A DNA stretch of 64,000 nt from Peronospora farinosa (Eukaryota; Oomycota; Peronosporomycetes; Peronosporales; Peronosporaceae): contig CANTFK010000921.1 of NCBI GenBank assembly GCA_947646735.1, positions 372,001 through 436,000 on the forward strand, written 5' to 3'. The translations under genes and the position numbers were made by a program. Shown one piece after another: positions 3,189 to 63,489 of this stretch (position 1 is its first letter; the number at the start of each line of letters is the position of its first letter). The notes below the pieces were generated by a model. The model saw only the letters and a list, made by a program, of their open reading frames with translations. It had not been told where the DNA came from and searched no databases.

Positions 3189-4634
3189 TCAAAAACGTCC
3201 ACGGCGTACGGGCAATCCCGCCGAAGGGGAACCTCGAACTCTTTGATCGTGGCGGTGACGCTTCTGTAGAAGCCGTTTCACATAGAACTGAAGAACACCC
3301 TTTTCATCCAGCAGTGCCGGCGGAGGCCGGCGTATCGGCACAAGCTCCTTCTGAGCTACTTCAGGAGGTGAATTGTCTTCGTGAGACTGAACAGAAGATG
3401 AATACTCGCCTCGAGTCGTTGCAGCAGAGTCAAACCCGAGTGGAGGGGCAGCTTGACCTCTTGGTCCGAATGATACGTCCTGCGGCGGTGCCGACCACCT
3501 CGTCGCAAGCGCCTTAGCATTCACGTTAGATGGATCCCGATATGACTTGAGCATGCCAACATAGAACACGGGGTGCGTACGCAGTTTGCGCGGCAAGTTA
3601 AGCGTATACGCTGTGCCTTTCTTGGCCACGACCGTAAAGGGTCCGATGAAGCGCGGACGCAATTTTGTCTTCAATACAGTGGACATTACTTTAGTAGGTA
3701 GGTTTTTAGCATTAAGTAATACTTGGTCTTCGACCTCATAAAAATTGATACAACTTCTGCCTTTAGCATCTGCATATTCTTTTTGTTTATCTTGACTATC
3801 ATCTATTGCGTCTTGCACATGTCGTAAGACATTCAGTCGCGTCGCGAGAAACGCATTTACCTGTTTCTTAACAGTAACAGGGATGGCATCAGCAAGCCGA
3901 TCGGAAACCTCTCCCCCACCAAGCCCTGAAACACTCGTTGGTAGTAGTAACGGAACGCGTGGGTGCATGAGACCATTCACATAGAACGGAGTATATCCGG
4001 TAGAGGCGTGCACGGAGTTATTGAGTGCAAACTCAACAACAAGTAGCATAAAGCTCCAACGCTTAGGCGTTTCAGCACAAACGCTGTGGGGGATATCTTC
4101 AACAACGCGATTTACGCGTTCAATTTGACCGTCAGTCTGCAGATGATACGCTGCGGACATGTCCAAACGGGTGCCCAGCACCTGGAAGACGGACTTCCAA
4201 AATTTACTCGTGAAACGAGGATCACGGTTAGAAACAATTGCCACTGGCAAGCCATGTTGGCGAAACACTCCATCGATAAACATCTCCGCTGTTCCTTCAC
4301 CATCGATCGAGTCGAACACAGCCGCCAAGTTAGCCATCTTGCTTAAACGGTTAACAAATACCACAATACCTGTGTTGCCATGCGAATCTTTCGGTAGGCC
4401 AAACACAAAATCCATACTAATGAATTCCCAACACACAGTAGGAATAGGCAAGCTAGCCAGAGGAGCCGCCGAATGGGGCGAGGATTTCACCCGTTGACAC
4501 GTTTCACACGTACGCACATAAGTGCTCATCCATTTATACAATTTGTGCCACCGATAATTGGCATACTGCTCCATATGTCTTTTCACGACCCAAATGACCA
4601 CCGATGGCGGTGTCATGTACCTCATAGAGGACAC
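3189..4634 (-). pseudogene. Element A integrase (catalytic core to chromodomain remnant)
   Basis: This frame of 481 codons carries the Ty3/gypsy integrase. The zinc-binding tail CETCQRVKSS is followed by the core with Asp in SMDFVFGLP, Asp in IVSNRDPRF and Glu in DGQIERVN, that is, a D,D,E set. The GPF/Y-type module RPRFIGPFTVVAKKGTAYTL and HPVFYVGMLKSY then leads to the linker RRPPPALLDEKG. The chromodomain begins (FYVKRLLQKR) but its core is missing: the expected end, FEVPLRRDCP, is found just downstream in another frame. The frame therefore ends in out-of-frame residues. Position and content make this the last part of pol. Confidence 0.85.
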
Positions 4635-4639
4635 GAAAC

Positions 4640-40479: not shown

Positions 40480-41197
40480 GAATTACGCAATCACCAAATG
40501 TCTATCCATTTTTACATATCCTCCATTCTCGCGATCGCGGTGATCGCAATTAATAGGCCTATTATCGTAGTAATTGGGCAGCGAACTGCGATCTTCTCGG
40601 CGTAGCAGTAGGTGTCCATATCGCTAACGGCCAGTCGTATTCACCAACTCACAAACCTGTAATTGCCAGTGTGTTCTTCCAAATCCTCTCCTGACGGGCC
40701 AGCACCTGGCCGTTGGTCTGCCCCTTCGCTCTCTGGACCCGACCCTGACTTGATTGTTCCGACCTTGGACCTCGTCGGGGACCCTCCTGATTATGCGAGT
40801 GTCGCCCAAGCATGGAGAGTTATCCAACTGGCGATGGAACGGACCCAAGTCATGAAGGCTCTCGCTGAAGATCATAGAATCCTTCAGTAGGACAATCAGG
40901 CTAAGCATCGCCGGGCCCAAGAAATGCAGTGCCGCGTAGATGAAGTTGTTCGATTCGAGGAAGTGAATGAAGTTGTTCGATTCGAGGAAGTCGATCTTCA
41001 TCAGATTAAGGATAGGATCAAAAATTTCGTATCTCGGTATGGTCGTATCCAGTATGAATACCTGGTACAATGGAGGATACTCCGATCCGTCATGGGTAGA
41101 CGAGGTGGACATCAACTGTGGAGAACTGCTTGAAGAATATGAACGCAGTCAAGTCACTCATAATCGCTTTGAGGTAATGCAGAGCCATGAGGAGTAG
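40480..41197 (+). pseudogene. Family E fragment E0: accessory-ORF start fused to a chromodomain
   Basis: Plus-strand pieces: LSGPDPDLIVPTLDLVGDPP and AWRVIQLAMERTQVMKALAE (about 40720-40880), coiled-coil sequence like the N-terminal part of the family E accessory ORF, then EMQCRVDEVVRFEEVNEVV, with a 27-base tandem duplication at about 40938-40990, running straight into a pol chromodomain (DRIKNFVSRYGRIQYEYLVQW, then after a one-base shift YSDPSWVDEVDINCGELLEE) that ends RFEVMQSHEE at 41197. In other copies these two parts are on opposite strands, so this is a rearranged chimera. It has a stop after HRILQ and a frameshift. Confidence 0.55.
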
Positions 41198-41345
41198 AGG
41201 GAGAGTTCATTCTGGAAAGGTCGAGATGATGAAAGAAGGAGGTGGTATTTGTTGCATACATATAAATCGGTCAAGCTATATATTCGAGAGATCAGCGGAA
41301 CAAGAAGAGTAAAGAATTGTAAGCCTGAAGAGTACCCGGGCCCAT

Positions 41346-41900
41346 CTAAGACATGGGTTGAAAGAAAACGATTTGGAGTTTACTATGCGCCGGGCTATAA
41401 CGACGACGAGAGGCACGCGACTGGGCCATCGCGGCTATCAGAGACTCAACGCTACTACTAGACTCGTTTTTAGTGGAACTATAAACACGGGTAGTCTGGC
41501 GCTTATTAGATGTGAAAGGGGCTGGGGCCTTGACAGCGGGCGACCGCGACCTCTTAGCACTCAAGGGTACCGGGGCCTTGGCCATAGGCGTAGCAGGTTT
41601 AGATTTAGCGCTCCGGGCCACTGCCAGCTGCTTCTGGTGCCAATCCCGTTGGAGAATGACTTATTTTGCGAGATCCTTTGAGCGAGCATATTCATCCTGG
41701 TGTTGCGACACTTAAGATACCTTGGCCCGAAAGTCGGCCGCGACAATGTCCAACTGAACCTCCCGTTCCTCGACTTTGACCGTTAAGTTCGTCACAGCAG
41801 CTTCATACTGGCCCCTCCAGTATCTTTTGGTGAACCGAGACGCCACGACTTCAAGACTGTAGTATTTCTGGTTGGCGAGTGCATCTCGGCTCTCCACGAT
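41346..41900 (-). pseudogene. Family E accessory ORF fragment
   Basis: Minus-strand pieces YEAAVTNLTVKVEEREVQLD and DIVAADFRAKVS (coiled coil), then VARSAKSKPATPMAKAPVPL, ending KNESSSSVESLIAAMAQSRA. The equivalents in E2 (DSTLAADFRRMKSKASKYKK; DATLAALSGSRSTARRR) and E3 (DSETLRAALAKSRSSNRR) are in the same order. The C-terminal domain is missing. It converges with the chromodomain ending at 41197, reproducing the family arrangement. Confidence 0.6.
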
Positions 41901-41904
41901 AGTC

Positions 41905-44450
41905 AGCTGATCAGTTTGGTGATCGCATTCCTTCCCATACGCCTTACAAGAATTTTCTCTACTTCATACTCGTTCTCCTCTGATTCTGCAACTAATTGTC
42001 CTCTGGCAACAGGGCTTCGTCAAAATCCACCCGATCCGTCTCGTCCACCACCAGCACCGTATTCGGTCTGTCGGGGTGTTGATGGACTAACTTCAACTTC
42101 GAAATGTGTACCAACAAGTATATACAATGATCTGTTCCACTGATTTCCAGTCGAGCTGCATGGTCACCCACCAATTCCCGTACTCTGAATGGTCCATGCC
42201 AAAGGTAACTCTTTTTTCGGGCATAGCCCTCTTTGACCCGGTTCAAATACAAGCACACTCCTCAACTGTGCTATTAATCACATCGTCGTTGTGAGCCTGG
42301 TCCCGGACTTCAATCGCCCATCGCAATAAATCGTTGACTTGCTCCCTCACCCGACGATACTTTCGCTGCACGCCATATCGCCACTAGCGGGGTTCACAGT
42401 CACGCCGCTTGGTACTGCTAAACGGTATAGTGGCTTCCACGGTACTTCGTTCATCCCAACCGTGCACTAGGTAGAACGGAGTCTCCTTTCTGACCCGGTA
42501 CTGTGCCGTGCCCAGTAAATGCAAGCCTCTCTGAATACGCATCCTATTCTTTCTAGTCCACCTCCGACACATGATAGATCGGGTGATAGTCTGCTTTCCG
42601 CTGTTCGGTTGGCCTGTGGCCGGTAGGTCAGTAGCCCGCTGTTTCTGTCCAATCATGCGGCTAAATGCGCGAAAGAAATCTGACATGAAACTTGGTTCCT
42701 GTCTTGTCGGATTGCCTCACAAGCCCCAGACCGACGAAATACACATTCTTCATATCCTTCTGACACGGTTTGGGCCGACCTCGACGGGCTTTCTTTAGCA
42801 ACTACATACCCAGTTAAGAATTCCACCCAAATCAACATCTCCTTATTTCCATGAACGGCTTGGGCAACGATAGGATATGATCCATTGCGATAACCTGAAG
42901 CGGGTAGGTAGCTTGAATATTTATTGGGGTCTTGCCTCGTAAGGTTTGATCCAACCTTTGCCGGTCTCGCAGTCAAGACAAGTATCAACGAAACGTTGCA
43001 CACTGTGGAATAGTCCTTCCAATGGAAATGTTTTCGCATCCGCTTGTACGTACGGCCGATTCATTGGTGTCCCCCTTCTAGCCTCGTGTGATAATCGTAT
43101 TGAAAATCTTGTTGTAGACTTTCAGGTATCACTAGCCAGATCATTCCATCGCGATCCTCGTCAGCTGTCCCCTGACAAGGGCAATACAAAAGAAGTAATC
43201 ATCATCCAAAGTGTAATTCTCTCGTTTTTCCTGCACATTAACGCAAATTCTACTAATAAACTGCTCCAATCACCTCATAAGTAAATCATTAGTCGCGTAT
43301 CCACATCTCTTCGTCCTGGGCAGCCGAAATTTGCTCGATCCGTATTTGTTGCACTAACTCTTACTGCAAAACCTCTGTCGGCATCCTGGACAGGACCTGA
43401 GACTTCGTGACAGCTGTGTTTTGCAGTGCGGGGCTTGGTTTCATGGGTACCAGGAGTACAGGCAGACAGTCAATCTCTTATAGGCTCTTCCACTCTTCCT
43501 CAGGTATTTTGGCGATGCATTGTTGCTGATGTGGGGCTGCGTTAGCGAGCCGGTCTGCACTCTGGTTTCATTCGAGCTTCATGTGTAGGAGCTCATAGGA
43601 TGGCCAAAAAAAATACCGGCCCAGGGACTTCGACCTTTGTGCCGTGAGACCTGATAAACTCAATTCTCCTCGCATATGTCGGATGATCAGATTGGAGTCT
43701 ACACATACAAGCAGACGCCTACGATATAATTTCTCCAGTAGGCTAAAACCTTTATACTCTGCTTCATTAAATGTTGCTTTCGTTTAGTGTCTTAAAGCTA
43801 CAGCAACCACGGTCCACCCTGGAAGTTGCCATACAATAGCACTACAAGCCTTTCCTCCGCGCTTAGCTCGTGCAGACCAATCGAAACTGACCAAGTACAA
43901 GACCTCCTCGGGTTCGACTGTAGGGGGGCCACTATGATAGCTTGGCGCGAGTGTTTACTGGGGGCAATTGAAGATAGAATAAAGTCCACATTTCCCGGGG
44001 GCGTAATGCTAGTTGTTAATGTCCCTGCCTTGTAACACCGGCTTGTCCTATGAGCTCGACTTCTATAAAGTTGGGTTTTGGCAGTATTTCGTCTTCGCCT
44101 CGTTTACACTTGATCACCTCTAATGTTCATAGGGACAAGAGAGCCGCCCAGTTCCCAAGGCGGCCTTATCGACCAGGTGACCAAACCAACCACGCCAGTG
44201 CCAAATGCCGAGTCAGGACCTTGATCGATCGGGTAACCAACGACGTGTAACAAAGGTCTAGTATCCGCAATAACTCCAGCACTTCCGTTTCCACTAACCC
44301 ATAGTTAATTTCATTTGACTGCAATGTCCGACTCGTCAAAGTCGTGTCTCCGTCTGTTGGGGCCTTCAACTTGGTATGTATCCTCTTTTTGCTTTTGTAC
44401 ACCGTTGGCTCATGAGTAGTAGTTTGGAAAGGACTTGTTTCGGGGTCCAT
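41905..44450 (-). mobile_element. Family E pol fragment C (RNase H to integrase)
   Basis: A minus-strand, frameshifted pol: connection/RNase H start (TLTSRTLQSNEINYGLVETE, LAWLVWSPG; 44450-44166), RNase H pieces about 43990-43550, integrase zinc-binding region (EGGHQ...TYKRMRKHFHWKD near 43130-43000), integrase core pieces (KEMLIWVEFLTGYVVAKES; SDFFRAFSRMIGQKQRAT; RVRKETPFYLVHGWDERSTVE), integrase C-terminus RVKEGYARKKSYLWHGPFRV (42258-41992), and the first residues of a chromodomain (ENEYEVEKILVRRMG) before the break at about 41905. RT proper is absent. It closely resembles the plus-strand E2 and E3 copies. Confidence 0.75.
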
Positions 44451-45410
44451 TGTTTTTTTTAGCTTTCGCTGTCAAACATGGGACCCCTTGACCATAAATG
44501 CTTACTATGGCCCACGATGTCTTCTTCAATGAAGACAATCGGGAGGGTTTTTAGGCTTATATTCATATTCCACCTTGACCTCAATGGCAGAGATCCTCCC
44601 CGGGGTCTGCAGGTCGATCCTTCTTCCTTCTTGATCACTGGCGATCCGGGTTACAGTGTCTTGGTCGTCCCTTGGTCTATCTTGACCGTTGTATTTCCTT
44701 CTTCGTGAGGCTTACGGTATAATCCCGCGTCTCCCGAAGATCCGGGCACGCGCACCATTGTGGTGGATTGGATTCTCAAACAACGCAAGATAAACACAAG
44801 CACACACAGCGCCGCCGACTTGCGATGGGGTTACTCCGATACCGTGTCGCTTCAACCTTGGGTCTCACCTTGTGTACACGTCGTCTTGGCTGGTCTTGCT
44901 CCTCGCTAGACGCAGAAGACTTATAGACTTGGCCCTTGTATGGGACTTGGTGGTCTTCGAGAGGATATACCACTCTTGACCGGTTTTCTTGTGCTCGATC
45001 GACTGAGTTGAGAGCTATTCACCTGGTACTATGTACCTCTTTCGGTGTCTAACGGTTTCTTGGTCCTTGGACACCTTTGTGTTCTTCCCCGTAGGAAAAC
45101 CGCTTCCTGTAGCGGGTCGTCGAGTCTTGACACCTCAGGCCAACTATCCTGAGGTATAAATTGCGTGGGTTGCGTCTAACACTTGCTGACGTCGGGGGCC
45201 AAAGGGGATTCCGCCCGGAAGAGGTGAGGCGACGGAGAAGCTTGGAGGGGGTGCTTAAAGCTGCCACGTGTAATGCAGATCCGAGTGTGTTTATTTATCA
45301 TATTCTTTATATGCTTTTCTTGCCTAACCAAAACCCTAACCCTTCGCTTTTGGATGGTGCCACGTGTCATCTTCATTTGGAACATCTAGCTTTTTTAAAG
45401 CTCGGTACTT
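44451..45410. other. Retroelement-derived spacer, unassigned
   Basis: Between fragment C and the E1 accessory ORF. Short frames on both strands (for example minus 44973-44776) are not recognisable. It may include LTR or leader sequence of either fragment, but no terminal motif pair was found. Confidence 0.35.
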
Positions 45411-45699: not shown

Positions 45700-47212
45700 A
45701 CATAGCTGTGGAGCGTTTTCATGTTAAACTGAACGCACTCGAAGTTGATCATGATCGCCTTGTGAGTACGAGTATCCGGACTGATGCGACCTTAGATCGG
45801 TTTCATTAAGAAATTGCGAATCGAGAGGCGGAGCGCGATCCGGACATCCGTGATCGTGACACGCGTCGATCGCATTTTCCAAGCTGGCCACTGGATTTTA
45901 TCCACATTTTAGCAGCCATCCACACCTTCCGGCTCGTTTTCGCAAATTTACAAACGTTTATCGACTTCACTGGTTTCGAACTCTTTGCTCGATTCGCCCA
46001 TCAACGCGATCAGCCACATCAGCGCGATCCGCTGCCCCGGATCGCACTGCTACATCGGCACTACCCAGGACACATATTTCAGGTATACCCACTTCGTAAG
46101 CGAAACGAAAAGCTCGCCCTTCGCTTTCATCTGATTCAGAACACGACGAATGGTCTTTCGATCTGATGACGCCACACTTGTCACCTCTTTTAGTGTCGCG
46201 TTCCACCGCTAGGCGTCATGCACCTGTGACACACGCTCCTGCTAGCACCGGATCGTCTCACTCCCCTATCTTCATTCGCACTGATATTGTTATCGAGATC
46301 GCGGCCTTTTTTCGAGTGAGTATTCCGGCTAAGATTTCCAAGGTTGACCTTTTCGGCAAACCTTCTAGCGATTCTGAAGGTACAATAAGCGTCTTCAGTG
46401 ACGTTCGTGAGAGCGCAAACCTTCTGCTCAATACGAAAATCTTCCTTACACTAGAGAATCACGCGATCTGTGGATTCCGGGACATCATGATCGAATATCT
46501 CGATCGTCGATTCAGGTTGCTCCGTAATAAGCTCAACGGGCCCGTCTGACCAGTGTCGCGGAGATGGAAGTGTATTTACTATACCGAAATCTGTCGAGAC
46601 CGGAAGGATTTTGTTTATATATCCCAGATATATCCAAACTCCTCCTCCTGGCTCGCATTGGACTACTCGGCTGATGAGCTCGGAACCAATTACCGCACTC
46701 TATGATCAAGACCTTGGAAGATCACCCGCCAGCAGGTTACTTCTGTCTCTTCCTCGCTGACTGGGTGGTTTAGAAGTTAAAGACCCTTAATGTGAGTTCG
46801 TGGAGTGGCACCGGCAAGCATCATGGGAAGCGACTTAACCCCTGTATTTTTCCAGTGAGCAACAAGAAATTGATTCAGAACTGGCACAATTCTGCCAGCA
46901 ATGCAAACAACGTCTGTAGCGATCTGAACCCCGCTAGAAGAAGATTCTTCAATTTATTATTCAAGGGATGTTCGAGAGACACTGCAACTTGGATATATTG
47001 CTGGGTCCTTTCTTCTAGCACTCCCTGCACTCGCGGAGTTACGACCGTGGTATCCTGGTCTGGGGCGTGAACAGAAGAACATTTCTAGCTTGATCAATAC
47101 ACTATATATGTCGGATCTTGCAAAACTGTAGCGTAACCAGTATCGATCGACAATCGCCGGTCACCCTAAATCGTCGATCACCCGCCTATCCGGTAAATTC
47201 TTTCTGAAGTAG
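45700..47212 (+). pseudogene. Family E accessory ORF, copy E1 (plus strand)
   Basis: Frameshifted pieces in the order seen in E2: NALEVDHDRLVSTSIRTDAT and EIANREAERDPDIRDRDTRR (about 45720-45880), RSTARRHAPVTHAPASTGSS and ISKVDLFGKPSSDSEGTISV (46166-46440), ELAQFCQQCKQRL and GMFERHCNLDILLG (about 46870-47010), ending LSGKFFLK with TAG at 47210-47212. The E2 counterparts are ELAQFCQQRKQRR, GMIEGHCDLDILLD and LDGKFFPK. It runs on the plus strand, opposite to its adjoining integrase (minus, below). Several stops show that it is dead. The N-terminal part is missing. Confidence 0.7.
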
Positions 47213-47399
47213 CGCTGAGGATCTAGTAACATTATGCATTCATTCAATACTCTTTTCACTTGGTGAACACATTTCTATAATCTTTTTGAGATTTTCGTCT
47301 TCAATATTTGGCTTTCAAGCTCGATCAGGTACATCCAACTTATGATCGCTATACGCACCATACATAACATTCCTTTCTACTATCCTATGTAACCTCATC

Positions 47400-48270
47400 G
47401 TATATTGTAACGCCCTTTACAAACCGGCCACTGTTCGATACAAGATCTATCTTCATGCGACTGCATAATTTCGAATTGAATCTTGCTAACTTGATTGTGA
47501 TCAACTCCTGTATCGATGCACCATAGTTTAAATTCGCTTTGTCTGCCAGAATGAATTGCTATACCTACTAATAATTCCCTCTGTGCTTACCGTAACGGTT
47601 ACTTTGTCCGGATCGTACATCCACGATTTTTCCACCTCAAATTTGTATGGGTCCAGACCCAATTCCTAACTATCTTCTGGCAACATAGCTTCAAAAATAT
47701 TCAAACAATTCGATTCTTTAATTTTTAACAAAGTGATCTGGGAATTGTCAACCGATTTAACTTCGAAATGTACACCACTGGGTATGAATGATATGGCATG
47801 CCTTCGATCTCGAAACGCACTGAGTGCTCTTCACATAACTCTGCGACTCGAAACGGTCCATGCCACATGTGCTCTAACTTGCGAGCATGATCATCCTTCA
47901 CTCGATCCAAATAAAACCCACTTTCGATCTTTGCTCGATACCATGTAGTTCTTGATCGACATTATGCTGATCGGCACGATCTCGGGTCGCGCTCTTTCGA
48001 GATCATTCTTTACGGCTCTTGCTCGTTGATATTGACGCTGTCTGTGGTATCACCACCTTCGCGGCTCAAGAACAAGCCGTTTAGTGCTTCCTAATGGTAT
48101 GTGACGGAGTAAATTTCACAAATTTGCTGATGCAATTCCAACTCTTCACTGGCGCCCGGCCTACCGACTATCGAAGGGGCACCCGATAACGTGTGCAAAA
48201 CCGTTCTTACCTTTTGTACCCGTCGGTTGGGCGGGTTGCACCCTTCTCGGTGGACTCGAGTCGATATTAA
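47400..48270 (-). pseudogene. Family E integrase C-terminus and chromodomain, copy E1
   Basis: Minus strand: VGRPGASEELELHQQICEIY near 48190, then RVKDDHARKLEHMWHGPFRV and YPVVYISKLNR (47910-47725), the integrase C-terminal module, then the chromodomain start DPYKFEVEKSWMYD near 47640 and its end QFEIMQSHED near 47470. About 190 bases separate its end from the accessory ORF end at 47212, which comes from the other strand. Everything between the leader and the integrase C-terminal part is deleted. Confidence 0.65.
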
Positions 48271-48760
48271 CCGGAGTGGTATTCCAAATAAAGAGTTTTG
48301 GTGATCTTACGGCAATCTCCCCTATATCAACCTAGTACTTGTTTGTTGATCTTCCCAATAGATCCCAATTATCCAATAATGCAAAGCTTGAAACTGCGGA
48401 CCAATTGAGAAGAACCTTCTGACCACTTGATTCGTTCTGCACTTGCTTGTCTTGACCTTAATTGTTAATACGCGTCTGATCGCAGTTGGATATCGACTAC
48501 AAGTTTCCCTGACCACAACAATCCAGGGTAAACTTGTTATATATAATCTTGGCGCTGGAAGGTCGAATATCCTGCCTGGAATAAAGTAGTCGACACGTGT
48601 ATCTTTGAAGTAAATTAAACTCTGTTTAATGTTAACCAATCTCATACAACCAAACCCTATGACTCTCCCTGTCTGGAATCTAGGATCTACTGCCACGTGT
48701 CGCCTTCTTGAAAGATGAATCAGATGGGCAGCCCAGATAGTATCGTAATCTCGTCGATCC
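48271..48760 (-). repeat. Family E leader/LTR-proximal region, copy E1
   Basis: The minus strand from 48696 reads MAVDPRFQTGRVIGFGCMRL then VNIKQSLIYFKDTR, and the DNA ends in a block around CACCGAGAAGGGTGCAACCC. The plus-strand region 59217-59690 matches the same sequence in the same order. It precedes pol in both copies, so it is probably LTR and/or leader; the open frame may be incidental. Confidence 0.5.
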
Positions 48761-52349: not shown

Positions 52350-55300
52350 AAATGTTGGTATATGCTTATGATCCTTCTGAATGGACGAAGACCTCCTTAC
52401 CGGGCGACCATACAAGCGATCACAATTCCAGATCAATATGTGGTGATTCCCGTGGGCAAATCGACCGAAGTGAAGATCGGAGTTAGTCCTCCTAAAGCCA
52501 AGATCTGGGTGAGGCGCGATCCGAAGGGGGTACCTACAGTAACTACGGGACCAGGTCAGATCAAGTATCTACAGCTGACTAATATCGGTGATCAAGAAGT
52601 GACTTTAAGTCATGGATCGCCATTAGGCTGGTGGATGGTCGCTGATATGATACCTCGGTCCCCAGGATATGTCTCGGTGGGATCGCGTCGGATCGCGTCG
52701 TAACGAATGGCAGACGTTAGCGTTCGAAGCGACAACGGATCGAGAAGAAGAACTACTGGAAGAATTTACCGGACCGCTAGTGGATCATCCTTCGTACCCT
52801 ACACCGAAGAGGATCTTAACACGCTCAAAAGAGGAAGCAGAAGAAAGGTCTACGGAAACGGTGAAACTTACGACACGACCCAATGATGAATGCGATGCGA
52901 TAAGAGAAATCGGTGGAAACAATGTAGAAGATCCGGTGATCGAAGATGAAAGTGAACAAGTAGCGCAATCTCCATGGGTAATCAATGCGATCAGAGGGAT
53001 GTCAAATGTCGATCACGTGCAAGGGCCGTGGGGTGAAGATAATTACACTCACAATAACTATACACAGAAATGTATGGAGCGCGATCCGACAATTAATGAC
53101 CGCGATCTGGCTGATCTGGCAATCAATGACCCCGATCGAAATTGATGACGCGATCTGGCCGATCCGGTAGTTAATGACCGCGATCTGGCCGATCCGGTAG
53201 TTGATGACCGCGATCTGGTCGATCCGGTAGTTGATGACCGCGATCTGGCCGATCTGGATCGCGATCTACGAGAACAGGAGCAAGCTAGTGATACTACGAC
53301 TATCAACGACGAATGTATTCTAGCCGGAGGAAGTGTAAAGATGAAGCCTGAAGACTCGATGTATTATCACGAGAGTGGTGAATTGTATGCCGAAGATGTG
53401 GATCAGCATATGGCTGTCTTGCCTGAGATTGTGTCATCCACCGAAGAAGTTACGATTGATGATATCCAAGTGGGCGATCCGGGAGTTCCTTTAACCAAGG
53501 ACCAAGAAGGTCTACGGCAATTAATTTGGGCGAACCGACACTTACTCATTGGCAAAGGAAATGCGCTTCCTCCTGCAGCTCGAGGAGCAGTATGTGATAT
53601 CGATGTTGGTGGAGCACACCCGATCGCACAACGAGTACGACCGGTCGCTCCCAAATTTCGCGAGAAGTTAGCTGACCTAATCAAAGGATTACTATCAGCC
53701 AGGATTATCCAGCCGTCGACATCACCATGGGCTTCGCCGATTGTGGTAATTATAAAAAAGAATGGTGTCGACATCCGGTTATGTATTGACTATCGGCGGG
53801 TGAATCAACTCACGAGATTGATGGTGTATCCTATGCCGCTGATTAGCGAATTATTGCAAGATATGGATAAAGCTATGTGGTATTGTTCGTTGGATATGGC
53901 CAGTGGATTTTGGGTCGTGGAAATGACCGAGCGAGCAAGGATGATTTCTGCTTTTATCACGCCGTCAGGCCTGTTCGAGTGGTTACGAATGCCGTTTGGG
54001 CTAAAAAACGCTCCGCAGATTTACCAACGTCTAATTGATAATGCACTGTATGGATACCTCAAGATCGGTACGGATCCAAACGCAATTGCCACAGGATCAC
54101 TCGACTCCGCTGATACGGTAACGGGATCGCCAAAGCTGGTTGATGTATTCACTGAAGGCGAACCGGATACTAGCCAGAAGCCATCTGTGCTCGGCCGAAG
54201 GTCATATATTGATGACATACTAATTCCAGCAACCTCGTGGGCCTCCTTATATGATAAGGTAAAGCGATTGTTAGAAGTATGCAACGAATGGAATTTGTCG
54301 ATCAGTCTCGCTAAACGTTTTTGGGGACGACGTAAGGTGGACTACCTGGGTCATCAAGTCTCACTTGCAGGAATCGAAGCTAATCCAAAGGATTTGGGAT
54401 CGCTGGTGAATATTCCGTTCCCAAAAACGTTGCGATCGATGCAATCGTTTCTGGGAAGTTTGAATTACTATAGTCGATTTGTCGAAGACTTTGCGATTTA
54501 TGCGTCAGTGCTATATGAATTACGGGAAGCAGATTTCCACGAAATCCGCTGTTCTGACAAGATGAATGCATTGAATTCGCCTATCGCCACCAGGAATGAT
54601 TCAGATCAAAAGTTCGATATTGGGGACGACCCAGATCCAGAAGGACGGACTCGATGGGAAAAAGCGATGATCGCATTTACCATGTTGAAAGCCAAGATCG
54701 CTAATACCCCGATCCTCAAACACTTCGATCCAGATCGGCCTCCGGTAATTATCGTATATGCGAGTCAATGGGCAGTTTAAGCAGCTTTGTTGCAGAAGTA
54801 TGATGGCACATACTGGCCAGTTACGTTTACAAGCCGAACGCTGAAGCCTAATGAGATCAATTACGGAATGGTCGAGAAGGAGATACTAGCTTTACTTCGG
54901 ATTTTGGATATATGTTATTGCATGCTAGTCTCGCGAGAGATTAAAGTTCTTACGCGTTTCTCGACGATGGCCTGGTTGGTGCAATCCTTCGGTCTCAATG
55001 GCAGGCTAGGTAGGTGGGCCGCATTATTATCGACTTGGACTTTGGAGATCAAGAAATGTGAAAAGGGCGAAGATGAAATGCTTGGTGCCCTGGCTGCAAG
55101 TGACCCGTGAAGAAGTCGTTGAAGTGTTGATCGCGATCGCTCCCCGGAAACAGCCAAGGCAAACTCTAAGTATGCCACCGCCTACGGTGGAAGAAGATGG
55201 AAGTCTCTTGGTTGTCAGTTTCGATGGATCGGCATGAACCAAGCGAAAGGGTGGATCATACAGTGCGATAATATGGAAACTTCCTGAGTGGACTATTGTG

Positions 55301-55920
55301 GCTTGCTGCATCGGAATATGCAACGGACTTAACAGTGAACGAAGCCGAATATCGGGGTTTACTATTAGGCTTTGATCTGTTGGAGAATCAGACTAGGGGA
55401 CGCGTTATTATTTGTGGCGACTCCAACCTAGTGATTCGACAGATGCGGGGTGAAATCGATTGCAAGGCTCCTGGACTGCAGCTGTTGCGACAGAAAGCAA
55501 TGGAGAAGCTTCAATCATGGCCGATCCATGAGTTCTTACATATGAAACGCGACTGGAACCAAAGTGCAGATCGACTGGCGAGTACTGCTTTACAGAAGGA
55601 ACAAGGTGTGGTCATCACTTCGGAAGGAGATCGCCAAGATCTCATTACCCTTAATAGACTGGATGAGTTGTTGAAGTCGAAGCAGACCGAATCGGTGGTT
55701 AAAGTGGCTGCGATTACCAGAGCAACCCGGAGAAGACGTCAACCACCTGAGATTTTGCAAGAATTTGAGCGCGAATAAGTTCGCCGTAATCGGTTTGAAG
55801 TTATGCAGTCTCATGAAGAGGAAAAGCGGAAGATTAGTGAATTTATTATCTTGCTTACGGAGAGTGGAAATGGCTGTACAAGATGGCTGCATAGGCTAAA
55901 CGAACGAGGATATATGTGAA
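52350..55920 (+). pseudogene. Family E pol, copy E2 (protease spacer, RT, RNase H, chromodomain end)
   Basis: From 52350: IQAITIPDQYVVIPVGKSTE and QLTNIGDQEVTLSHGSPLGWW, a pre-RT region, then an acidic spacer with 30-base repeats. RT (53341-54780): ARIIQPSTSPWASPIVVIIK, CIDYRRVNQLT, GLFEWLRMPFGLKNAPQIYQ, the catalytic YIDD in SYIDDILIPATS, and YLGHQVS. A single TAA at 54778-54780 interrupts otherwise continuous sequence into VTFTSRTLKPNEINYGMVEK. RNase H (55296-55778) has DLTVNEAEYRGLLLGFDLL, VIICGDSNLVIRQM and FLHMKRDWNQSADRLAS. It jumps directly to the chromodomain end RNRFEVMQSHEE near 55800: the integrase is deleted. The 5' end is cut by the LTR-like block. Confidence 0.82.
53080..53260 (+). 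repeat. 30-base tandem repeat within family E pol
   Basis: About five units of the form GATCTGGCCGATCCGGTAG plus TTGATGACCGC, encoding DRDLADPVV(D/N)-type decapeptides. A stop/frameshift at 53143-53145 splits the array between frames. Confidence 0.8.
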
Positions 55921-56092
55921 TATGAGTTGTCGGTCGAAGGTCTGAAAGACCAGATCACGACTGAAAAGGCCCAAAATAAGACGACAATTGCAAGAACGAC
56001 CAAAAGGATGAAGCAAAACAGTGAAAATATATTAAATGCTGAAGAAATGAAATCGGATCGCGAAGTGCTACTCCAGATCGGATCGCGAGAAG

Positions 56093-58571
56093 TTACTTTG
56101 GAAAGAACTTACCGTCCAGACGAGGGATCAGCGATCCCGGGTGATCTTCAATCGAAATTCGATACTGATTTCTCCACGGCTCGGCAGAGTCCAACATTGA
56201 GAGCGCGGTAACCAGGTTAGGGATATTCTTCTTCTCGCACTCCAAACCAGGATACCATGGTCGCACTTCTGCGTACACTGGAAAGTGAAGGAAGTATGGA
56301 TCCAACAAAATGTCCAGATCGCAGTGTCCTTCGATCATCCCTTGGAGAATAACGCGAAGAATAGTCTTCCAGCGGGGTCCAGATCTCGACCGACGCTGTT
56401 TGCGTTGCTGACAAAATTGCGCCAGCTCTGTATACTCCTTCCGATGTTCGCGGGAGATATACAGGAAGTGGGTTGCCTTCCACAAGGCTTGCCTATGGCG
56501 ATCTTCATATATCCAGGTAAATGTCCGCCAGATCTTTGAACCAACCGGTCAGAGGGAAAGAGATGGGAGCAATCGGCCGACGAGTGACGTTCCACGGTTT
56601 CTGATCGTAAAGCGCAGTAACTTGTGCCGGGGTGATCAGTCGGGGAATCCACTCAGAATCAAGAAGAGATTTGGGATTGGCTTGAGGGGTGAAGATATAC
56701 CCTCTCGGTCGGGACAAGTGTCGATAGAAGAACTCCACTCCCAATTCTGCAACACTGGTTAGACTGACCCGTCGGGCGGACCATGGAGCAACCTGAGTCG
56801 ACGATCGGGGCTTTCGCTCACGATATCCAGGGATCCATGCATCACGTGATTTTTGGAGATCCGGCAGATCGGCGTATTAAGCGGGAGTGAGCAACTGGTT
56901 TATATCTTCACGGATGTCACTGGAAACGCTAATCTTCCCGTCCGAGTCGCTAGAAGGTTCGCCAAAAAGGTCGACCTTGGAAATCTTGGTCGTAAGGATA
57001 GGGGGTGTAGCAGGACTCGAGACTGGTGATTTTTTGGAGGGTGGGCTACCATTGTGAAATATGATAGGGGACTGAGACGATCCGGTGTTGCCAGAGAGTT
57101 TCGTCATGGTGGTGCGACGCCTCGCGGTTGAACGCGATCCGGATAGAGCAGCAAGTGTAGCGTCTTCGGGATCGGAAGACCACCCGTCATGCTCAATTTC
57201 AGGCGAAGGCGAGCGACACGCTTTGCGTTTCCCTTTAGCTTTCGACGGAACATTGAGTCGCGTTGTAATAATGGATCTCACCGACTTGGCAGATCGTTTT
57301 GGGGTACCATATCGCGCCGGAGTACCAGATAGCGCTAAAGGTATTAGACTGTGCCGAGGTACCAGATCGCGCTGGAATTTCATATCGCGTCGAAGTACCA
57401 GATCGCGCCGGAGTACCAGATTGCGTCGAATTATCAGATCGCGCCGAAGTATCAGATCGCGCTGAAGTATCAGATCGCGCCAGGGTACTAGATCGCGCTG
57501 AACTATCAGATCGCGTCAGAGTACCAGATCGCGGTGGAATGCCAGATCGCTCCGAGGTCGCGGATTGAGTGGAAGTACCGGAAGAGCTGTGGGGACGTTT
57601 GCAGGGGACGTCCAGAGTCGGTGAAGATGACGCACGTTTGCGATTGGGTGACGAGGGATTGGAAAGCGCGAGAAGGCTAGTCGGAGAAGGAAGTAAGCCC
57701 GTAGCCAACTCTGACAAATGCGAACGAAGTAAGTCTCGATCCTGGATGGCCAGATCGCGCTCCGCCTCTCGATCTGCAACTTCGGTACGAAGTCGACCCA
57801 AAGCTGCGTCGTTCCGAATACTTGCATACTCGCACTCAGGAGGCGATCATGATCAAGCTCGAGCGCGCTCAGCGTGTCTTGCAGTTGTTTCGCGGCTTGC
57901 TGGGCCTGAGAACGAGCTTTCTTGTACTTGGACGCCTTGCTTTTCATGCGTCGAAAGTCAGCAGCCAGAGTACTGTCAGCAGCATTACGCTATGCGAGGA
58001 TGGAATCCAATTGCTGTTGGAGGGACGCGATCTGCTGCCGGAATTTTCCTTCCAGAGTTCGCTAAAGATTGGCCGCCTCACGGCGGAATTTATACTGCAG
58101 GCGATGTTTCTCTGCATTGGCTCGAAACAAGGCATTCCTCAGATATGCGATCTCCTGAGACTGATCCGTTAGCTGGTTCAGTTCTTCGTCGAGACCTTCG
58201 GCCATGTGGAGAGAGACATCAAGTTGTTTACGCAACTCTTCATCTCGACGCAAGACGAATGTGCACAGTCGAGGCACCAACTCGTGATACGCATTGAGTT
58301 CCGTCTCCAGCTGATTTCCACGAAATTCCTGCTCCCATAAGGCATTTTCCATGGAGTGATAACTTTCCACGATGGTATCTTGGGCTTCCAGGCGGTCATA
58401 CAATGAAGAAACCAACGAGATCGCGTTCTGACGATCCGTAACGGGAGGAAGGATTATCCGGGTAGACGGGAGCAGGATACGGGATCCGGTAGAAGAATTC
58501 ATCGGTAGATCGCGCGGGACGAGCACACCAGTTTGGGGGTGGTGATCGTTTTCGGGTGGACATCTGGCCAT
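56093..58571 (-). pseudogene. Family E accessory ORF, copy E2 (longest copy)
   Basis: From MARCPPENDHH at 58571 the order is: ILPPVTDRQNAISLVSSLYD; a long coiled coil (LEAQDTIVESYHSMENALWE, KQLDVSLHMAEGLDEELNQL, RRMKSKASKYKKARSQAQQA); a Ser/Thr/Ala/Arg repeat region (57302-57559); KGKRKACRSPSPEIEHDGWS; ISKVDLFGEPSSDSDGKISV; then a conserved globular C-terminal domain (PLTGWFKDLADIYLD, WKATHFLYISREHRKEY, GMIEGHCDLDILLDPYF, RPWYPGLECE, QYRISIEDHPGSLIPRLDGK) ending at 56093. Two in-frame TAG codons (about 58062 and 57993) and a few frameshifts break it. No CCHC knuckle, protease or polymerase motif is present. It runs against pol and ends about 175 bases from it. Confidence 0.72.
57302..57559 (-). 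repeat. 18-base coding minisatellite in the accessory ORF
   Basis: About 14 units of GTACCAGATCGCGC plus four variable bases. On the minus strand they encode hexapeptides such as SDTSAR, SGTPAR and SDSSAR, a Ser/Thr/Arg-rich low-complexity linker. Confidence 0.85.
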
Positions 58572-59216
58572 AGGGGACGAAGGGACGAGAAGCGTGAAAC
58601 GAGACAGTGCACAGCTAGGCCAACACTGTATGTGGGCTAACGGTGCAGGGGACGATTGTGGCGAAGCGAAGGAGTGAATTTGGCGAAGTGTGATCGCATA
58701 TTTTCGGTTAAGTACGAAATGGCCAATATTGATGAATCGCAAACTCGCAGAAAGGTTTCGAGATGATGGCAAATGGGATGGAAAACAGTGAATGGTGGAG
58801 TTTGCAGTTCTATGTGGGATCAAATATGGCCTAGAAACTACGCAATTGCGATCTTCGGTATTTTTCGATGGCGATCCGCGTGAACGCGATCGCTAAGAAG
58901 GAGGATTGGTACATCCAAGTATATGGAATACGGTCTGGTGTGAATTACATCGCTATGGAAGACTGGAATGAGGTGGACATGACACGTCATATAGATGGAC
59001 CATCTCACATCACCCGAGAAACGGTGAAGAGGACAAGTCGTGATCCGGCGGACCGCGATCTGATACTAATTATTAGTACCGCGATCCGATATTAATTATT
59101 AGTACCGCGATTCGATACTAAAAATGGTTTTATATCCAATCGAGGTAGCGATCCAGATCGCGGCGATATTGGAGTGGACCACATTACAAGATCTAATTTT
59201 TCCGAAAGGGCAATAC
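58572..59216. other. Retroelement spacer between E2 and E3
   Basis: Contains GATCGCG-rich sequence and a short direct repeat of GATACTAATTATTAGTACCGCGAT (about 59057-59120). Probably LTR or untranslated sequence of family E. No gene is supported. Confidence 0.4.
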
Positions 59217-59652
59217 ATGGCAATAGATCCTGAGCTACAGATAGTCAAGATCATAGGTTTTGGTATTTGATTGGTTAACATTAACAGAGTTCAGTTTGCT
59301 TCTAAGTACACGTGTCGACTTCTCTTCCGGGCTGGATTCTTTGGCCTCCCGACGTCTCAAGGAAGTCTACATACTACGCAAGTTATATTCCTGGATTGTT
59401 TGGCCAGGGATTGCAATAATTCTCAACAAAACAACTCAAGCTGCGATTGGACGCAGAGGACTAAGAAGTCCAGATACAAGATCGCGAGACGGCTCAAGTG
59501 GTCAGAAGGCAAGCGTATCAAGTATCTACATTTTTGGACAAGGCGATCTCAAGGGAGATCAGGGCGACTAAAAAAGAGCACCTTAAGAACAACTGCGATC
59601 TTGTGAGGAATTCCACTCGATCGCCCCCCATCTATCCCTAACACAATCAAGT
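59217..59652 (+). repeat. Family E leader/LTR-proximal region, copy E3
   Basis: Matches the minus strand of 48696-48271: starts ATGGCAATAGATCCTGAGC (MAIDPEL), contains an in-phase equivalent of LVNIN, and ends with the shared block TCGACTCAAGTCTACCGAG and GCAACCCGCCC. It lies immediately before the integrase remnant, as in E1. Confidence 0.5.
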
Positions 59653-60765
59653 TCAACATCGACTCAAGTCTACCGAGAAGAGAGCAACCCGCCCTACCGA
59701 CGGGTACACAAGGTGAGGAAGGAATTGCTTTACACGGAAACGGAGTACCCCCTCCGTTAGTCGGTCGTCCGGGCGCCAGTGGAGAGTTGGAATCGCATCA
59801 GCAATTTTGCGAATCCCACTCCACCACACATGGCCTACCGACCTCAAGCGAGCGGCACTGCTGAGAGAATGGTCCAGACTCTAACATGATCGCTCAAGAT
59901 GTACGTAGTCGACGTGGGACAGCGATACTGGGATGAATACGCGGAACGTTTAACGTTCGTATTAAACACGGATCAAGGCAGAGTGCAAAAGAAACACCGT
60001 TCTATCTGGTCCAGGAATGGATGCTAGGACCACTATTGAGACCATGTTACCGGTGGTAAACACTCGACGTCAAGAATCAGGACATCGGAGATGGAGATAT
60101 CGGATTCAGAGTCACTATCAGCGAGCAAGGGACCAAGTCAACGAGAATTCACGGGCGGCTAGTCAGGCTCGGGTGCAAGCGCAAAATGAAGGGGTAGTCG
60201 GCCACGAAATTCAGCCAGGGGCCCGGGTATGGCTATACTTAGACCGAGTGAAGGAGGGGTATGCCAAGAAATTGGCCCACCTATGGCATGGACCGTTCCG
60301 AGTCCAGGGGTTAGTCGGAGATCATGCAGTACGTCTGGAGTTACGAGATACAGAATACAGACTATTCCCAATCGTGCACATCTCCAAGCTCAAGCCCGTC
60401 AGAGAGTTCCCCGATCGACCTAATAGCGAGCTGAAAGTGGATGGAACGGATCGAGTCGACTTCGACGAATGTCTGCTACCAGAAGACAGCTGGGTGCGGG
60501 AATTGGAGGAAGGCGAGTATGAATTCTAAAAAGAATTTGTAGAGAGCCGTATAGGCAAGAAGACTCGGTATGGAAGGCAACGAAGAGAAATTTTCGTGCA
60601 ATGGAAGGGACACCCTGACCCCTCGTGGGTGGACGAAGTGGATCTGAATTGCGGAACTTTACTCCGGGACTTCGAGCGCAAGAAGACAAGCCGTTACCGC
60701 TTCGAAGTAATGCAAAGCCATGAATACCGAATACTAGCAGACTGTAGCAAGATCCTTGGAAGGTA
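59653..60765 (+). pseudogene. Family E integrase C-terminal half and chromodomain, copy E3
   Basis: Plus strand: MAYRPQASGTAERMVQTLT (near 59830, after a short leader remnant), YWDEYAERLTFVLNTDQG, then the frame 60017-60529 with RRWRYRIQSHYQRARDQVNE, GARVWLYLDRVKEGYAKKLA, LWHGPFRVQGLVGDHAVRLE and FPIVHISKLKPVREFPDRPN, then the chromodomain KTRYGRQRREIFVQWKGHPD, PSWVDEVDLNCGTLLRDFE, RFEVMQSHEY, stopping near 60765. Gag-RT-RNase H and the integrase N-terminal half are missing. Its end faces the accessory ORF end at about 61010. Confidence 0.75.
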
Positions 60766-60835
60766 GACCTGGTCCCTCATTGGTAGACCTGGTCTTTCAT
60801 TAGGTAGACCCGGTCCCTCGTTGGTAGACCTAGGT
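60762..60835. repeat. About 20-base tandem repeat between convergent ORF ends
   Basis: GGTAGACCTGGTCCCTCATT-like units begin at 60762, 60782, 60803 and 60823, in the gap between the end of pol and the end of the accessory ORF of E3. A related GGGTAGACCCGGG lies near 63200 beside the far end of the same element. Confidence 0.75.
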
Positions 60836-61009
60836 CGCCTATGGGGAGACCTCGACCTTTCACAGGTCCGGTGTATAGAAGAATGGAGAACAAATAGGGA
60901 AGATTGCCAAGATCACCTGGAACAGAGGAAGGTATGGCAGAGGAGATGGAAGATGGACAAGCGCACAAAAATAGGATCGAAGAGAACAAAGAATCTTGTT
61001 CAAAGGAAG

Positions 61010-63003
61010 ACCTAAATGGGTGGCCCAAAAGTTACCCTTGAGGCGTGGGACTAGAGCGCCAGGATGGGGCACAGAAGACAACCGATATTGGGTGAGCCAC
61101 GGCCACGCGAAATCCGACACCCGAAGGGCCTCAAGCAGGTCGACTGGGTCCGACCCCTCCTCACGACCAGGGTACCAGTAAACTACACGGCGAGTTCGAA
61201 GAAGATGACGGAAGAGGGGGTCCAGGAAGATGTCGAGATCGCAGTGGCCCTTGCTCATCCCAATGAAAATAAGGTCGACCACCTCCCGCCACGCTCGAGT
61301 CGCCCGACTCCGACGCTTCTTCCGCGCGTTTTAATATGACGCGAGGAAAGAGTTCGCTCGCGATCGGTCCTTGGAGATCCACAGGCAGTGGGTCGCCTCC
61401 CAAAGTGCTTGAATATGCTCTTCGTCAAACTGGGTGTAAACCGCCGCCAACTGGGCAAACCAGCCAACAGGTCGGAAGAAAACGGGCTGCATGGGAACAC
61501 GAGCTTCCACCCAAGGTTCCGCCGCCAGAAATCTCTGGATCATCGGAGGGTTCACCAGTGACTTCTTCCATTTGGGAGGGCGGTCGAGGTTTCCGTCTGG
61601 AGGACCGAACCAATCCCAAGGTAGATCCAGCTGGTTGACCAAGTCTTTTGGAGACATGGTTACAATGCACCACGAATTGACCAGGTCGACCGGCCAAGGT
61701 GCCACTTCCGCGGCAGAGAATGTCTTCGACTGCATGCACCCTGAGATGATGGCGACTCTGGGAAGCAGGCTGGAGTCGGCCAAAGGGGGCGAAGTGTTGT
61801 CCGCAACAGTAGGCGCACTCTTGTCTTTCTCCACAGACGACTCGGTCTCCGAGTCCGACGTCCCGAACATCGCCCGTTCAGCGAGAGGCCAGAAGCCGAG
61901 GTGGTCCTCAATGGGGGAGCGGACGTCGGCGGAAGACGTAAAGAGTTTGCACTGGTGGGGCGACGATTAGAAGAACGAGACTTGGCCAGAGCCGCCCGAA
62001 GTGTCTCGCTGTCTTCGCTGAGGTCGTCGTCCGAAGACTCCAACAAGACAGGAGAACGGCCACCAGAGACTGCCGACAGCGGTATGGCAGATGTGTCGGG
62101 CCTCGGAGGCTTGGAAACTTTGGCAGGCACACGGGGTGACAGCCGCCTGGACCGTTTACCAAGAGCTTTCGCAGGCCTCGAAGGGGAACATACGGCCGGG
62201 AGCGAAGCTGCCGAAGGAGGAGCTGGTCCCGGAGGTGGCCCATCGGAGAAGTCGACGTGATCAAGCTCTGCAGCAAGAGCGAGTAAGGGTTTCCAATGTG
62301 GTCGATCTTTCATCGCAGGCGATCCACCTGTGTCGTCTCGCGCTGAAGAGCTTTGTGGAGTTAGACCACCAGCTGGGAAATATCGCGTAACTTTTCTTCC
62401 AAACGCTCACAACGAGTGGTCAATAAGGTGGCCAAATGGGGACTTCACCTAGCCGTCTCCCGCAGTCCTCTATGCGGTAAGATTGCGCGTCCACGAGAGC
62501 TTGCAGTTCCTGCAGAGCTACACGCACGTCGACTGGAGCGGAAGACGGGTTGTCAACCTTGGAGACCGACGTGGCAGAAGAATCTGACGTCTTGGCAGAG
62601 GCGAAGCGGTGAAGAGAGGAGAGCTACCAACGACGACAGTTTCGGTTGAACTCAGCGGTGAAGATACCGGCCCGGGAAGGTCGACCAAGGACGCCTCTTC
62701 GAATGGAGGGTCGACCGAAGGCGCGGAAACGATCGAGGTCGGCTCTTCAGACGGTGGGTCGGTGGACGGTGGGTAAGCAGACGGTGGGTCGGTGGACGGT
62801 GGGTCAGCAGACGGTGGGTCAAAACCAGGGGAAGACATGGCTGGACAGACACGAGCTAGAGATGGATGAGCAACAAAGGGGACAGTAAAGGACCTACGTG
62901 ACGAAGGAAGTGAAGACATGCGCGTTCTCAATCCGTTGGACGGCTGAGCAAGTGCTGGGGGCGGCTGTGGTGAAGTGCTGTTTATGCGATGTGAAGACTC
63001 CAT
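61010..63003 (-). pseudogene. Family E accessory ORF, copy E3
   Basis: Minus strand from MESSHRINSTSPQPP (63003): Pro/Ser-rich N-terminus with 15-base repeats (DPPSTDPPSA), KRSRRLSPRVPAKVSKPPRP and VLLESSDDDLSEDSETLRAA with LAKSRSSNRR (62313-61900), FGTSDSETESSVEKDKS (61870), PVGWFAQLAAVYTQFDEEHI with ALWEATHCLWISKDRSR (61870-61331), then MSKGHCDLDIFLDPLF, YWYPGREEGSDPVDLLEAL and QYRLSSVPHPGALVPRLKGN (61282-61010). Every C-terminal block has a counterpart in E2 at about 45-60 percent identity by eye. Frameshifts interrupt it. It converges on the E3 chromodomain. Confidence 0.7.
62750..62824 (-). repeat. 15-base coding repeat
   Basis: Five units of GACGGTGGGTCGGTG or GACGGTGGGTCAGCA. The minus strand encodes (DPPST/A) pentapeptides in the N-terminal part of the E3 accessory ORF. 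Confidence 0.85.
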
Positions 63004-63489
63004 AATTTAGTTGGATTCGATATATAGACCGTGGGTCAGGGACAGGAGACCAGAGAGACAGGGACCTCGAAGGGGAGCGACCGTTGGTGGAGAACAATCC
63101 GCAGGACCCACAGAAGAAAAAGTCAGGTCAGGGTACCGGTTAACCGGTACCGAATGGAGTTGACCATGGCCCTTCATTGATCGATTTGGCCCCTCGTGGG
63201 TAGACCCGGGTTGTAATGGGCTACATTACACATAGTTAACACAAATAAACAAATACATATGTAGACAGGTGCTGGGCCCGAATAGCGGGCACAGCGTGAC
63301 AATCTATTATTGGATTATTTTTGGTTCCTAAAGTCCCAATATGGACCAATGATAAATCAACCTGAAATTGTGTGGTTCCCGAAAGGCGGGAACACTGTCG
63401 TATTTATTACGACTAAAATCTTCGTAATTAGTATGAATGAAAACCAAAATAAAATCAGAGTTAATTTTACTTAATACCTAATACTTGGG
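63004..63489. other. End of E3 and LTR-start-like motif
   Basis: Non-coding. TGTAATGGGCTACATTACA at 63212 resembles an LTR start in plus orientation and may be the beginning of the 3' LTR of E3. GCCCGAATAGCGGGC and TTCCCGAAAGGCGGGAA form small hairpins at about 63278 and 63379. The following family A LTR cuts or adjoins it. Confidence 0.4.

What the first reader, a model, noticed from the sequence alone, without database searches (positions are those of the whole stretch)
55296..63003. Ambisense Ty3/gypsy family: a large accessory ORF faces pol in repeated copies
In E2 pol runs plus to about 55920 and a roughly 800-codon ORF runs minus from 58571 to 56093. In E3 pol ends plus near 60765 and the homologous ORF runs minus from 63003 to about 61010. 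In E1 the pair is flipped as a unit (ORF plus ending 47212, pol minus ending near 47400). A broken version lies at 41197/41346. The gap between the convergent ends is about 150-250 bases each time. The ORF has a coiled-coil N-terminus, a repeat-rich linker and a conserved C-terminal domain, with no RT, protease or zinc knuckle. Seen: the orientation and repeated order. Known: plant Tat-lineage and a few other LTR elements carry antisense accessory ORFs, usually beside a sense gag. Inference: this is either a gag encoded on the opposite strand or a new accessory protein expressed from an antisense promoter near the 3' LTR.
Basis: partly seen in the sequence, partly recalled or inferred. Interest (0 to 1): 0.88.

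Follow-up and report, generated by a model that had tools for sequence, protein, structure and literature searches.

The report
Antisense third gene in oomycete retrotransposons
A widespread family of oomycete jumping genes carries, besides the usual two genes, a third large gene written on the opposite DNA strand next to the end repeat, much as some plant jumping genes do, but with an apparently unrelated protein.

Summary
The orientation is real and general in this genome. E2 and E3 are damaged members of two families (B, A) of one LTR-retrotransposon group. Better-preserved copies elsewhere in the same genome have LTR, sense gag with zinc knuckles, sense PR-RT-gRNH-aRNH-INT-chromodomain pol, then an antisense ORF of about 650-870 codons that starts 47-86 bp inside the 3' LTR and ends some 120-260 bp from pol. 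Of 116 ORF places with a pol 3' end within 3 kb, 115 are convergent, none same-strand, one divergent. The ORF is under purifying selection (pooled pN/pS 0.28-0.64), weaker than pol. Homologues, mostly unnamed, occur in Phytophthora, Nothophytophthora and Peronospora. The pol fits the published oomycete 'Chronos' architecture, described (parts read) with ORF1 and ORF2 only. It is not an antisense gag. The protein is a long coiled coil, a linker and an all-helical C-terminal domain; no significant fold match was found. Derivatives lacking that domain recur, suggesting it is not needed in cis. Best reading: a trans-acting, probably nuclear accessory protein from an antisense promoter at the 3' LTR, convergent with plant Retand/Grande antisense genes. 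Promoter, transcript and function are inferred.

The parts
52371..55856 (+). E2 (family B) pol: protease end, RT, degenerate gypsy RNase H, second (archaeal-type) RNase H; integrase and chromodomain deleted
   Evidence: tblastn to L043 pol residues 209-1377 of 1896; RVT_1 and RVT_3 by Pfam
56096..58571 (-). E2 antisense accessory ORF (broken by frameshifts and stops); ATG at 58571
   Evidence: tblastn to P0001; frames
58657..59828 (+). E2 3' LTR (family B), matches from position 1 to 1333 of the LTR with differences in repeat number
   Evidence: blastn, 83% and 94% identity
59829..60724 (+). E3 (family A) pol C-terminus: integrase end, SH3-like domain, chromodomain; 5' truncated at the E2 LTR edge
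   Evidence: blastn/tblastn to L039, pol residues 1463-1760
60725..61027 (.). E3 convergent gap between pol and antisense ORF; holds repeats like those in the family A LTR
61028..62919 (-). E3 antisense accessory ORF (broken); ATG homologous to that of open copies at 62919
   Evidence: tblastn to P0002 and P0009
62966..63211 (+). E3 3' LTR, first 246 of 1152 bp only
   Evidence: blastn to LTR A
45705..47230 (+). E1 antisense ORF remnant (B-like family)
   Evidence: tblastn to P0001 and P0005, 33-68% identity
47443..48100 (-). E1 pol C-terminus remnant, convergent with the E1 ORF
   Evidence: tblastn
48115..48725 (-). E1 LTR B-like fragments
   Evidence: blastn, two pieces
40777..41924 (.). rearranged pieces of a family D antisense ORF (the finding's 'broken version')
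   Evidence: tblastn: 40777-41031 + and 41487-41924 -

Best explanation
The window holds damaged copies of a Ty3/gypsy LTR retrotransposon with the architecture of the oomycete Chronos group. In its better-preserved copies it has three genes: sense gag, sense pol with two RNase H domains and a C-terminal chromodomain, and a third gene on the opposite strand between pol and the 3' LTR (shown). The third gene encodes a protein with a long N-terminal helix of coiled-coil type, a low-complexity basic/serine-rich linker and a conserved all-helical C-terminal domain with an RK(Q/K)RRSR motif (shown by sequence and model). It is read out of the 3' LTR by an antisense promoter in U3 or just inside it (inferred from its start 47-86 bp from the LTR). 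The protein is probably nuclear and oligomeric and acts in trans as an accessory or regulatory factor, for example on the element's transcription, silencing or the chromodomain-guided integration complex (inferred). It seems dispensable in cis, because derivatives that share one deletion of its C-terminal domain occur at many places (inferred).
For: L039, L041 (A), L042, L043 (B) and L044 (C) hold sense gag, pol and a convergent ORF; domains confirmed by Pfam on L039 and L043. Orientation 115 of 116. LTRs of one A copy (1152 bp; 1 mismatch, 2 gaps in 1153 columns) and one B copy (1333 bp; 4 mismatches in 857 columns plus 573 identical columns), 4-bp target duplications and the tract GTGCAGGGG at the 3' LTR. 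ORF pN/pS below 1. Homologues in other oomycetes. AlphaFold2: helix at residues 15-195 and a C-terminal domain with block pLDDT mostly 80-96. RK[KQ]RRSR in 12 of 13 proteins, no CX2CX4HX4C, no 19-residue window above KD 1.6. Shared deletion junctions: 18 places (B) and 4 (A), query copies included, lower bounds.
Against: No transcript, promoter or localisation data. The ORF is less constrained than pol; one pair gave 0.90, not significant, and the B set gave 0.64. Orientation in other species could not be read; metagenome protein P0008 joins RT-RNase H to the ORF's C-terminal domain in one sense frame on a 1.9-kb contig. The recurring deletion derivatives could also mean that the protein is of little use. 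The nuclear role rests on a basic motif and analogy.
Confidence: 0.55

Rival explanations
1. The antisense locus works mainly as an antisense RNA that pairs with the sense transcript and tunes silencing or copy number; the protein matters little.
For: The convergent layout gives overlapping transcripts if termination is leaky; a small palindrome lies in the convergent gap of families B and C; copies without the C-terminal domain recur.
Against: Protein-level constraint: pN/pS 0.28-0.64 in the ORF frame against 0.79-3.3 in the other frames, save the antisense frame that shares the ORF's third positions (0.44-0.64); a C-terminal domain conserved across genera.
Confidence: 0.15
2. The ORF is an envelope-like protein, as in retroviruses, placed on the opposite strand.
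For: Position between pol and the 3' LTR.
Against: No strongly hydrophobic 19-residue window in 13 proteins (maximum KD 1.59); long helix with coiled-coil matches and a basic motif.
Confidence: 0.03
3. The ORF is the element's gag, encoded on the opposite strand.
For: Large helical protein without recognised enzyme domains; a weak PNMA hit (E 0.046, under its cut-off) in one relative, P0012.
Against: A sense gag with three zinc knuckles is present in all five copies read, with Retrotrans_gag similarity just under the cut-off in the two tested; no knuckle in the ORF; no capsid among structure matches, which is inconclusive.
Confidence: 0.03
4. The ORF belongs to a separate mobile element that repeatedly inserted behind pol.
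For: 95 of 211 ORF places had no listed pol end within 3 kb, and 85 of 201 pol places no listed ORF (capped lists).
Against: One orientation and a narrow range of distances (quartiles 217-513 bp between hit ends), position inside the LTR pair in the A and B copy examined; of three pol-only places opened, two were internal deletions and one had an intact antisense ORF missed by the capped list.
Confidence: 0.02

Closest known systems
Chronos Ty3/Gypsy group of oomycetes (Ustyantsev et al. 2017, PMC5348765; abstract, passages, sections 5 and 14 read)
   Same: Ty3/gypsy pol with degenerate gypsy RNase H, adjacent archaeal-type RNase H and C-terminal chromodomain; Peronosporales/Pythiales
   Different: The parts read describe only ORF1 and ORF2; the main text has no occurrence of antisense, opposite, additional ORF or reverse orientation. 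RT phylogeny not repeated here; supplements not seen
Plant Retand / Grande / RIRE2 / PvRetro13 antisense aORFs (PMC11963269 and PMC7264820, passages read)
   Same: Antisense ORF between pol and 3' LTR; several encode SMC-like products; Grande's product is nuclear and transcribed from its own antisense promoter. Plant Tat elements also have dual RNase H (passages of PMC5348765, PMC10508981; that Retand belongs to Tat is recalled)
   Different: Retand proteins mostly carry TRP28 (PF04195); no PF04195 match in 11 oomycete proteins. Tat is described as only distantly related to Chronos by RT
Boty of Botrytis cinerea (from a passage in PMC7264820)
   Same: Antisense ORF between pol and 3' LTR outside plants
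   Different: Not compared by sequence here
HTLV HBZ / APH-2 (from passages in PMC11963269 and PMC7264820)
   Same: Antisense gene with a promoter in the 3' LTR, nuclear protein
   Different: Unrelated element class; no sequence comparison made
Bdelloid rotifer ORF3s (PMC5408684, passages read)
   Same: Extra ORF, including a coiled-coil type, added to gag-pol
   Different: The words antisense and reverse orientation occur there only for small RNAs

Membership tests
Chronos (oomycete Ty3/Gypsy) | Dual RNase H: degenerate gypsy RNase H followed by archaeal-type RNase H | tested here: met
   RT_RNaseH/RT_RNaseH_2 and RVT_3 in order in one A and one B pol; the B aRNH reads FDGS..NEAEY..GDSN..KRDWNQSAD and the B gypsy RNH has VYAS at the first catalytic position (the residue reading is mine)
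Chronos (oomycete Ty3/Gypsy) | Chromodomain C-terminal to integrase | tested here: met
   PF00385 at 7.2e-06 (A, above cut-off) and 3.3e-04 (B, below it), after rve and SH3_Tf2-1, both below their cut-offs
Chronos (oomycete Ty3/Gypsy) | Placement in the Chronos clade by RT phylogeny | not tested
   No reference RT sequences on hand
Chronos (oomycete Ty3/Gypsy) | Host in Peronosporales/Pythiales | tested here: met
   Indirect: A-family ORF C-term 99% identical to a Peronospora effusa protein, P0009; other relatives from Phytophthora, Nothophytophthora, Peronospora
[quoted passage not shown]
   115 of 116 convergent; start 47-86 bp from the 3' LTR in one A and one B copy
Plant Retand TRP28 antisense proteins | TRP28 domain PF04195 | tested here: not met
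   No PF04195 hit at E up to 0.5 in 11 proteins, P0001-P0007 and P0009-P0012; own-genome search also empty, but its control rang nowhere
Gag/capsid protein | CCHC knuckle or capsid fold | tested here: inconclusive
   No CX2CX4HX4C in 13 proteins; no significant fold match of any kind

The most novel reading that the evidence does not exclude
Oomycete Chronos-type elements and plant Tat/Retand elements, whose RTs are only distantly related, have each acquired an archaeal-type second RNase H and an antisense coiled-coil gene at the 3' LTR with unrelated proteins. The two traits would be functionally linked parts of one recurrent retrovirus-like design, in which an antisense-expressed nuclear protein controls reverse transcription, integration or silencing.
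Probability: 0.25. Interest if true: 0.78.

Novelty: new variant of a known kind. Interest (0 to 1): 0.58.

Why it matters
Antisense accessory genes of LTR retrotransposons are known mainly from plants, with no established function. An apparently unrelated protein in the same place in a distant eukaryotic lineage with the same kind of second RNase H gives an independent instance, so one can ask which features recur and why. A number of predicted 'hypothetical proteins' of Phytophthora and Peronospora are relatives of this transposon protein and can now be recognised as such, which matters when gene catalogues of oomycetes are made.
Full report
What is in the window. The window is part of a 46.85-Mb assembly in 274 contigs. 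The two elements of the finding are damaged copies of different families. E2 (family B) has pol-like coding on + from 52371 to 55856 and the antisense ORF on - from 58571 to 56096, followed by a full-span 3' LTR at 58657-59828; the stretch coding integrase and chromodomain is missing (DNA matches stop at 55763 and resume at 55879). E3 (family A) starts at 59829, the base after that LTR, with the last 298 pol residues to 60724, then the ORF on - from 62919 to 61028 and the first 246 bp of its LTR at 62966-63211. This suggests that E2 inserted into the E3 element. E1 shows the same convergent order reversed. The 'broken version' near 41 kb is fragments of a fourth family's ORF on both strands. 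No accessory ORF in the window is intact.

Better-preserved copies. A 211-aa piece of the E3 ORF found 151 matches in the genome, a good number with open frames of 600-970 codons. Six 10-kb stretches were read. In L039 and L041 (A), L042 and L043 (B) and L044 (C), a sense gag lies upstream of pol, and a convergent ORF lies behind pol; pol is a single open frame in L039 and L043 and split in L041, L042 and L044, and gag is cut by the end of several stretches. L040 carries one A-type and one B-type ORF with broken pol between. All five gags have three zinc knuckles (two CX2CX4HX4C, one CX2CX3HX4C). Pfam on L039 and L043 gives gag (Retrotrans_gag, just under its cut-off), protease, RT, gypsy RNase H, a second RNase H (RVT_3), integrase and chromodomain; the ORFs have no hit near a cut-off. 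LTR pairs were compared for one copy each: A 1152 bp (1 mismatch, 2 gaps in 1153 columns), B 1333 bp (4 mismatches in 857 columns plus 573 identical columns offset by repeat number). Both have TG..CA ends, a 4-bp target duplication (AGGT; GAAG) and a GTGCAGGGG tract at the 3' LTR (my reading). The first ATG fitting the relatives is 47 bp (A) and 86 bp (B) inside the 3' LTR. The gap between the open frames of ORF and pol is about 120-230 bp in the five copies and about 260 bp in family D.

Orientation genome-wide. Hits of two ORF searches and two pol C-terminus searches (each capped at the best 150 candidates) were merged to 211 ORF and 201 pol places. Of the ORF places, 116 had a listed pol end within 3 kb: 115 convergent, 0 same-strand, 1 divergent at 2.5 kb. 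The other 95 had none and tell nothing. The median distance between hit ends was 273 bp, quartiles 217 and 513. Of the 85 pol places without a listed ORF I opened three: two were internal deletions of the ORF (L065, L066) and one had an intact antisense ORF of a fourth family, D (L067).

Selection. Only copies with a stop-free frame of 300 codons or more across the match were used: 16 of 30 A loci and 19 of 20 B loci, the B set cut to 10 by dropping near-identical ones. Pooled pairwise pN/pS in the ORF frame was 0.48 (A) and 0.50 (B); in the last 260 codon columns 0.39 and 0.28; before them 0.55 and 0.64. Over the whole alignments the two shifted sense frames gave 0.99-1.34; antisense frames gave 0.92-1.14 except the one sharing the ORF's third positions (0.56-0.57); by region the other frames ranged from 0.79 to 3.3. 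Single distant pairs were significant (for example 26 of 276 synonymous against 16 of 861 nonsynonymous sites, p 1.3e-07), but one A pair gave 0.90 and was not. Pol was tighter: A 0.30 (17 copies) against ORF 0.56 (10 of the same copies); B 0.25 (17) against ORF 0.64 (16), C-terminal part 0.45. Pairs are not independent, and repeats in the linker may inflate the ORF values. Between families, synonymous sites are near saturation, so those ratios are not used.

Relatives. Protein searches listed 5, 5 and 36 proteins, partly the same: Peronospora effusa (99% over 298 aa), P. matthiolae, Phytophthora nicotianae, palmivora, rubi, megakarya, ramorum and fragariaefolia, Nothophytophthora, and metagenomes. 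Names were mostly hypothetical or uncharacterised; a few bear other names such as autophagy-related or histone methylation protein. The host is therefore most likely P. effusa or a close relative (inference). A tree of 21 C-terminal regions joins own families B and C with three metagenome proteins, and own A and D with P. effusa; 7 of 18 inner branches are well supported. Strand relative to pol could not be read in these species. P0008, a 586-aa metagenome protein, joins RT-RNase H and the ORF's C-terminal domain in one sense frame on a 1.9-kb contig; this is either a rearrangement or a chimeric assembly, and it counts against strict generality.

Protein. AlphaFold2 on 24 relatives (first sequence P0004) gives a helix at 15-195, a low-confidence linker and a helical domain at about 481-747 with block pLDDT mostly 80-96, dipping to 66-67 at 541-560; overall mean 68.5. 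A second model, on P0037, is also helical there but weaker (mean 63.8). No Foldseek match at E 0.001. An RK[KQ]RRSR motif occurs in 12 of 13 proteins; none has a CX2CX4HX4C box or a 19-residue window above KD 1.6.

Deletion derivatives. The junction of the B deletion (loss of the C-terminal domain) is spanned at 18 places, the query copy included, at 75-100% identity; by my matching, 10 of these have a listed pol end next to them at 76-100% identity, one with a 1937-codon open frame. The A deletion junction is spanned at 4 places, one being the query. Both counts are lower bounds, as only 40 candidates were scored. Different contigs and graded divergence point to multiplication by transposition rather than one duplication (inference), so the domain seems not to be needed in cis. 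Help in trans from complete copies is one reading; dispensability is the other.

Known and new. The architecture is that of Chronos (PMC5348765; abstract, passages, sections 5 and 14 read); the parts read describe ORF1 and ORF2 only. [quoted passage not shown] passages). I found no mention of one in oomycetes in the listings of seven searches or in the passages seen of PMC12477816 and PMC10508981. I therefore call it a new variant of a known kind. What the protein does, and that it is made, remain inference.

Noticed in passing
L043:3347-3365 and L044:6607-6625 (convergent gap): Small palindrome TATGCAA-CCTTC-TTGCATA in family B (all 20 loci L045-L064) and TATGTAA-CCCTC-TTACATA in the one C copy, with one compensatory pair; no such inverted repeat in the A and D gaps read. 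Possibly a 3'-end signal for both genes.
   Followed up: partly
window 60762-60857; LTR A positions 208-436: The family A LTR carries about 11 copies of a 21-bp repeat; similar repeats lie in the E3 convergent gap and weakly in the gap of L039.
   Followed up: partly
L039:1483-2673 (minus): 397-aa open frame on the pol-sense strand inside the antisense ORF of family A, also open in some other A copies; explained here as an echo of codon structure.
   Followed up: partly
P0008 (metagenome protein, 586 aa): RT-RNase H fused in one sense frame with the antisense ORF's C-terminal domain on a 1923-bp contig; chimera or rearranged element.
   Followed up: no
L065, L066; junction searches: Copies with the same internal deletion of the antisense ORF occur at 4 (A) and 18 (B) places, some next to long open pol frames.
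   Followed up: partly
window 57304-57555: 18-bp tandem repeat (about 14 copies) in the linker part of the E2 ORF; open frames of B copies whose C-terminal part is intact differ in length, 905-973 aa in the long ones, perhaps through this repeat.
   Followed up: no
window 3537-5427 and 41995-44456 (minus): Further pol remnants distant from families A-C (26-67% identity); not pursued.
   Followed up: no
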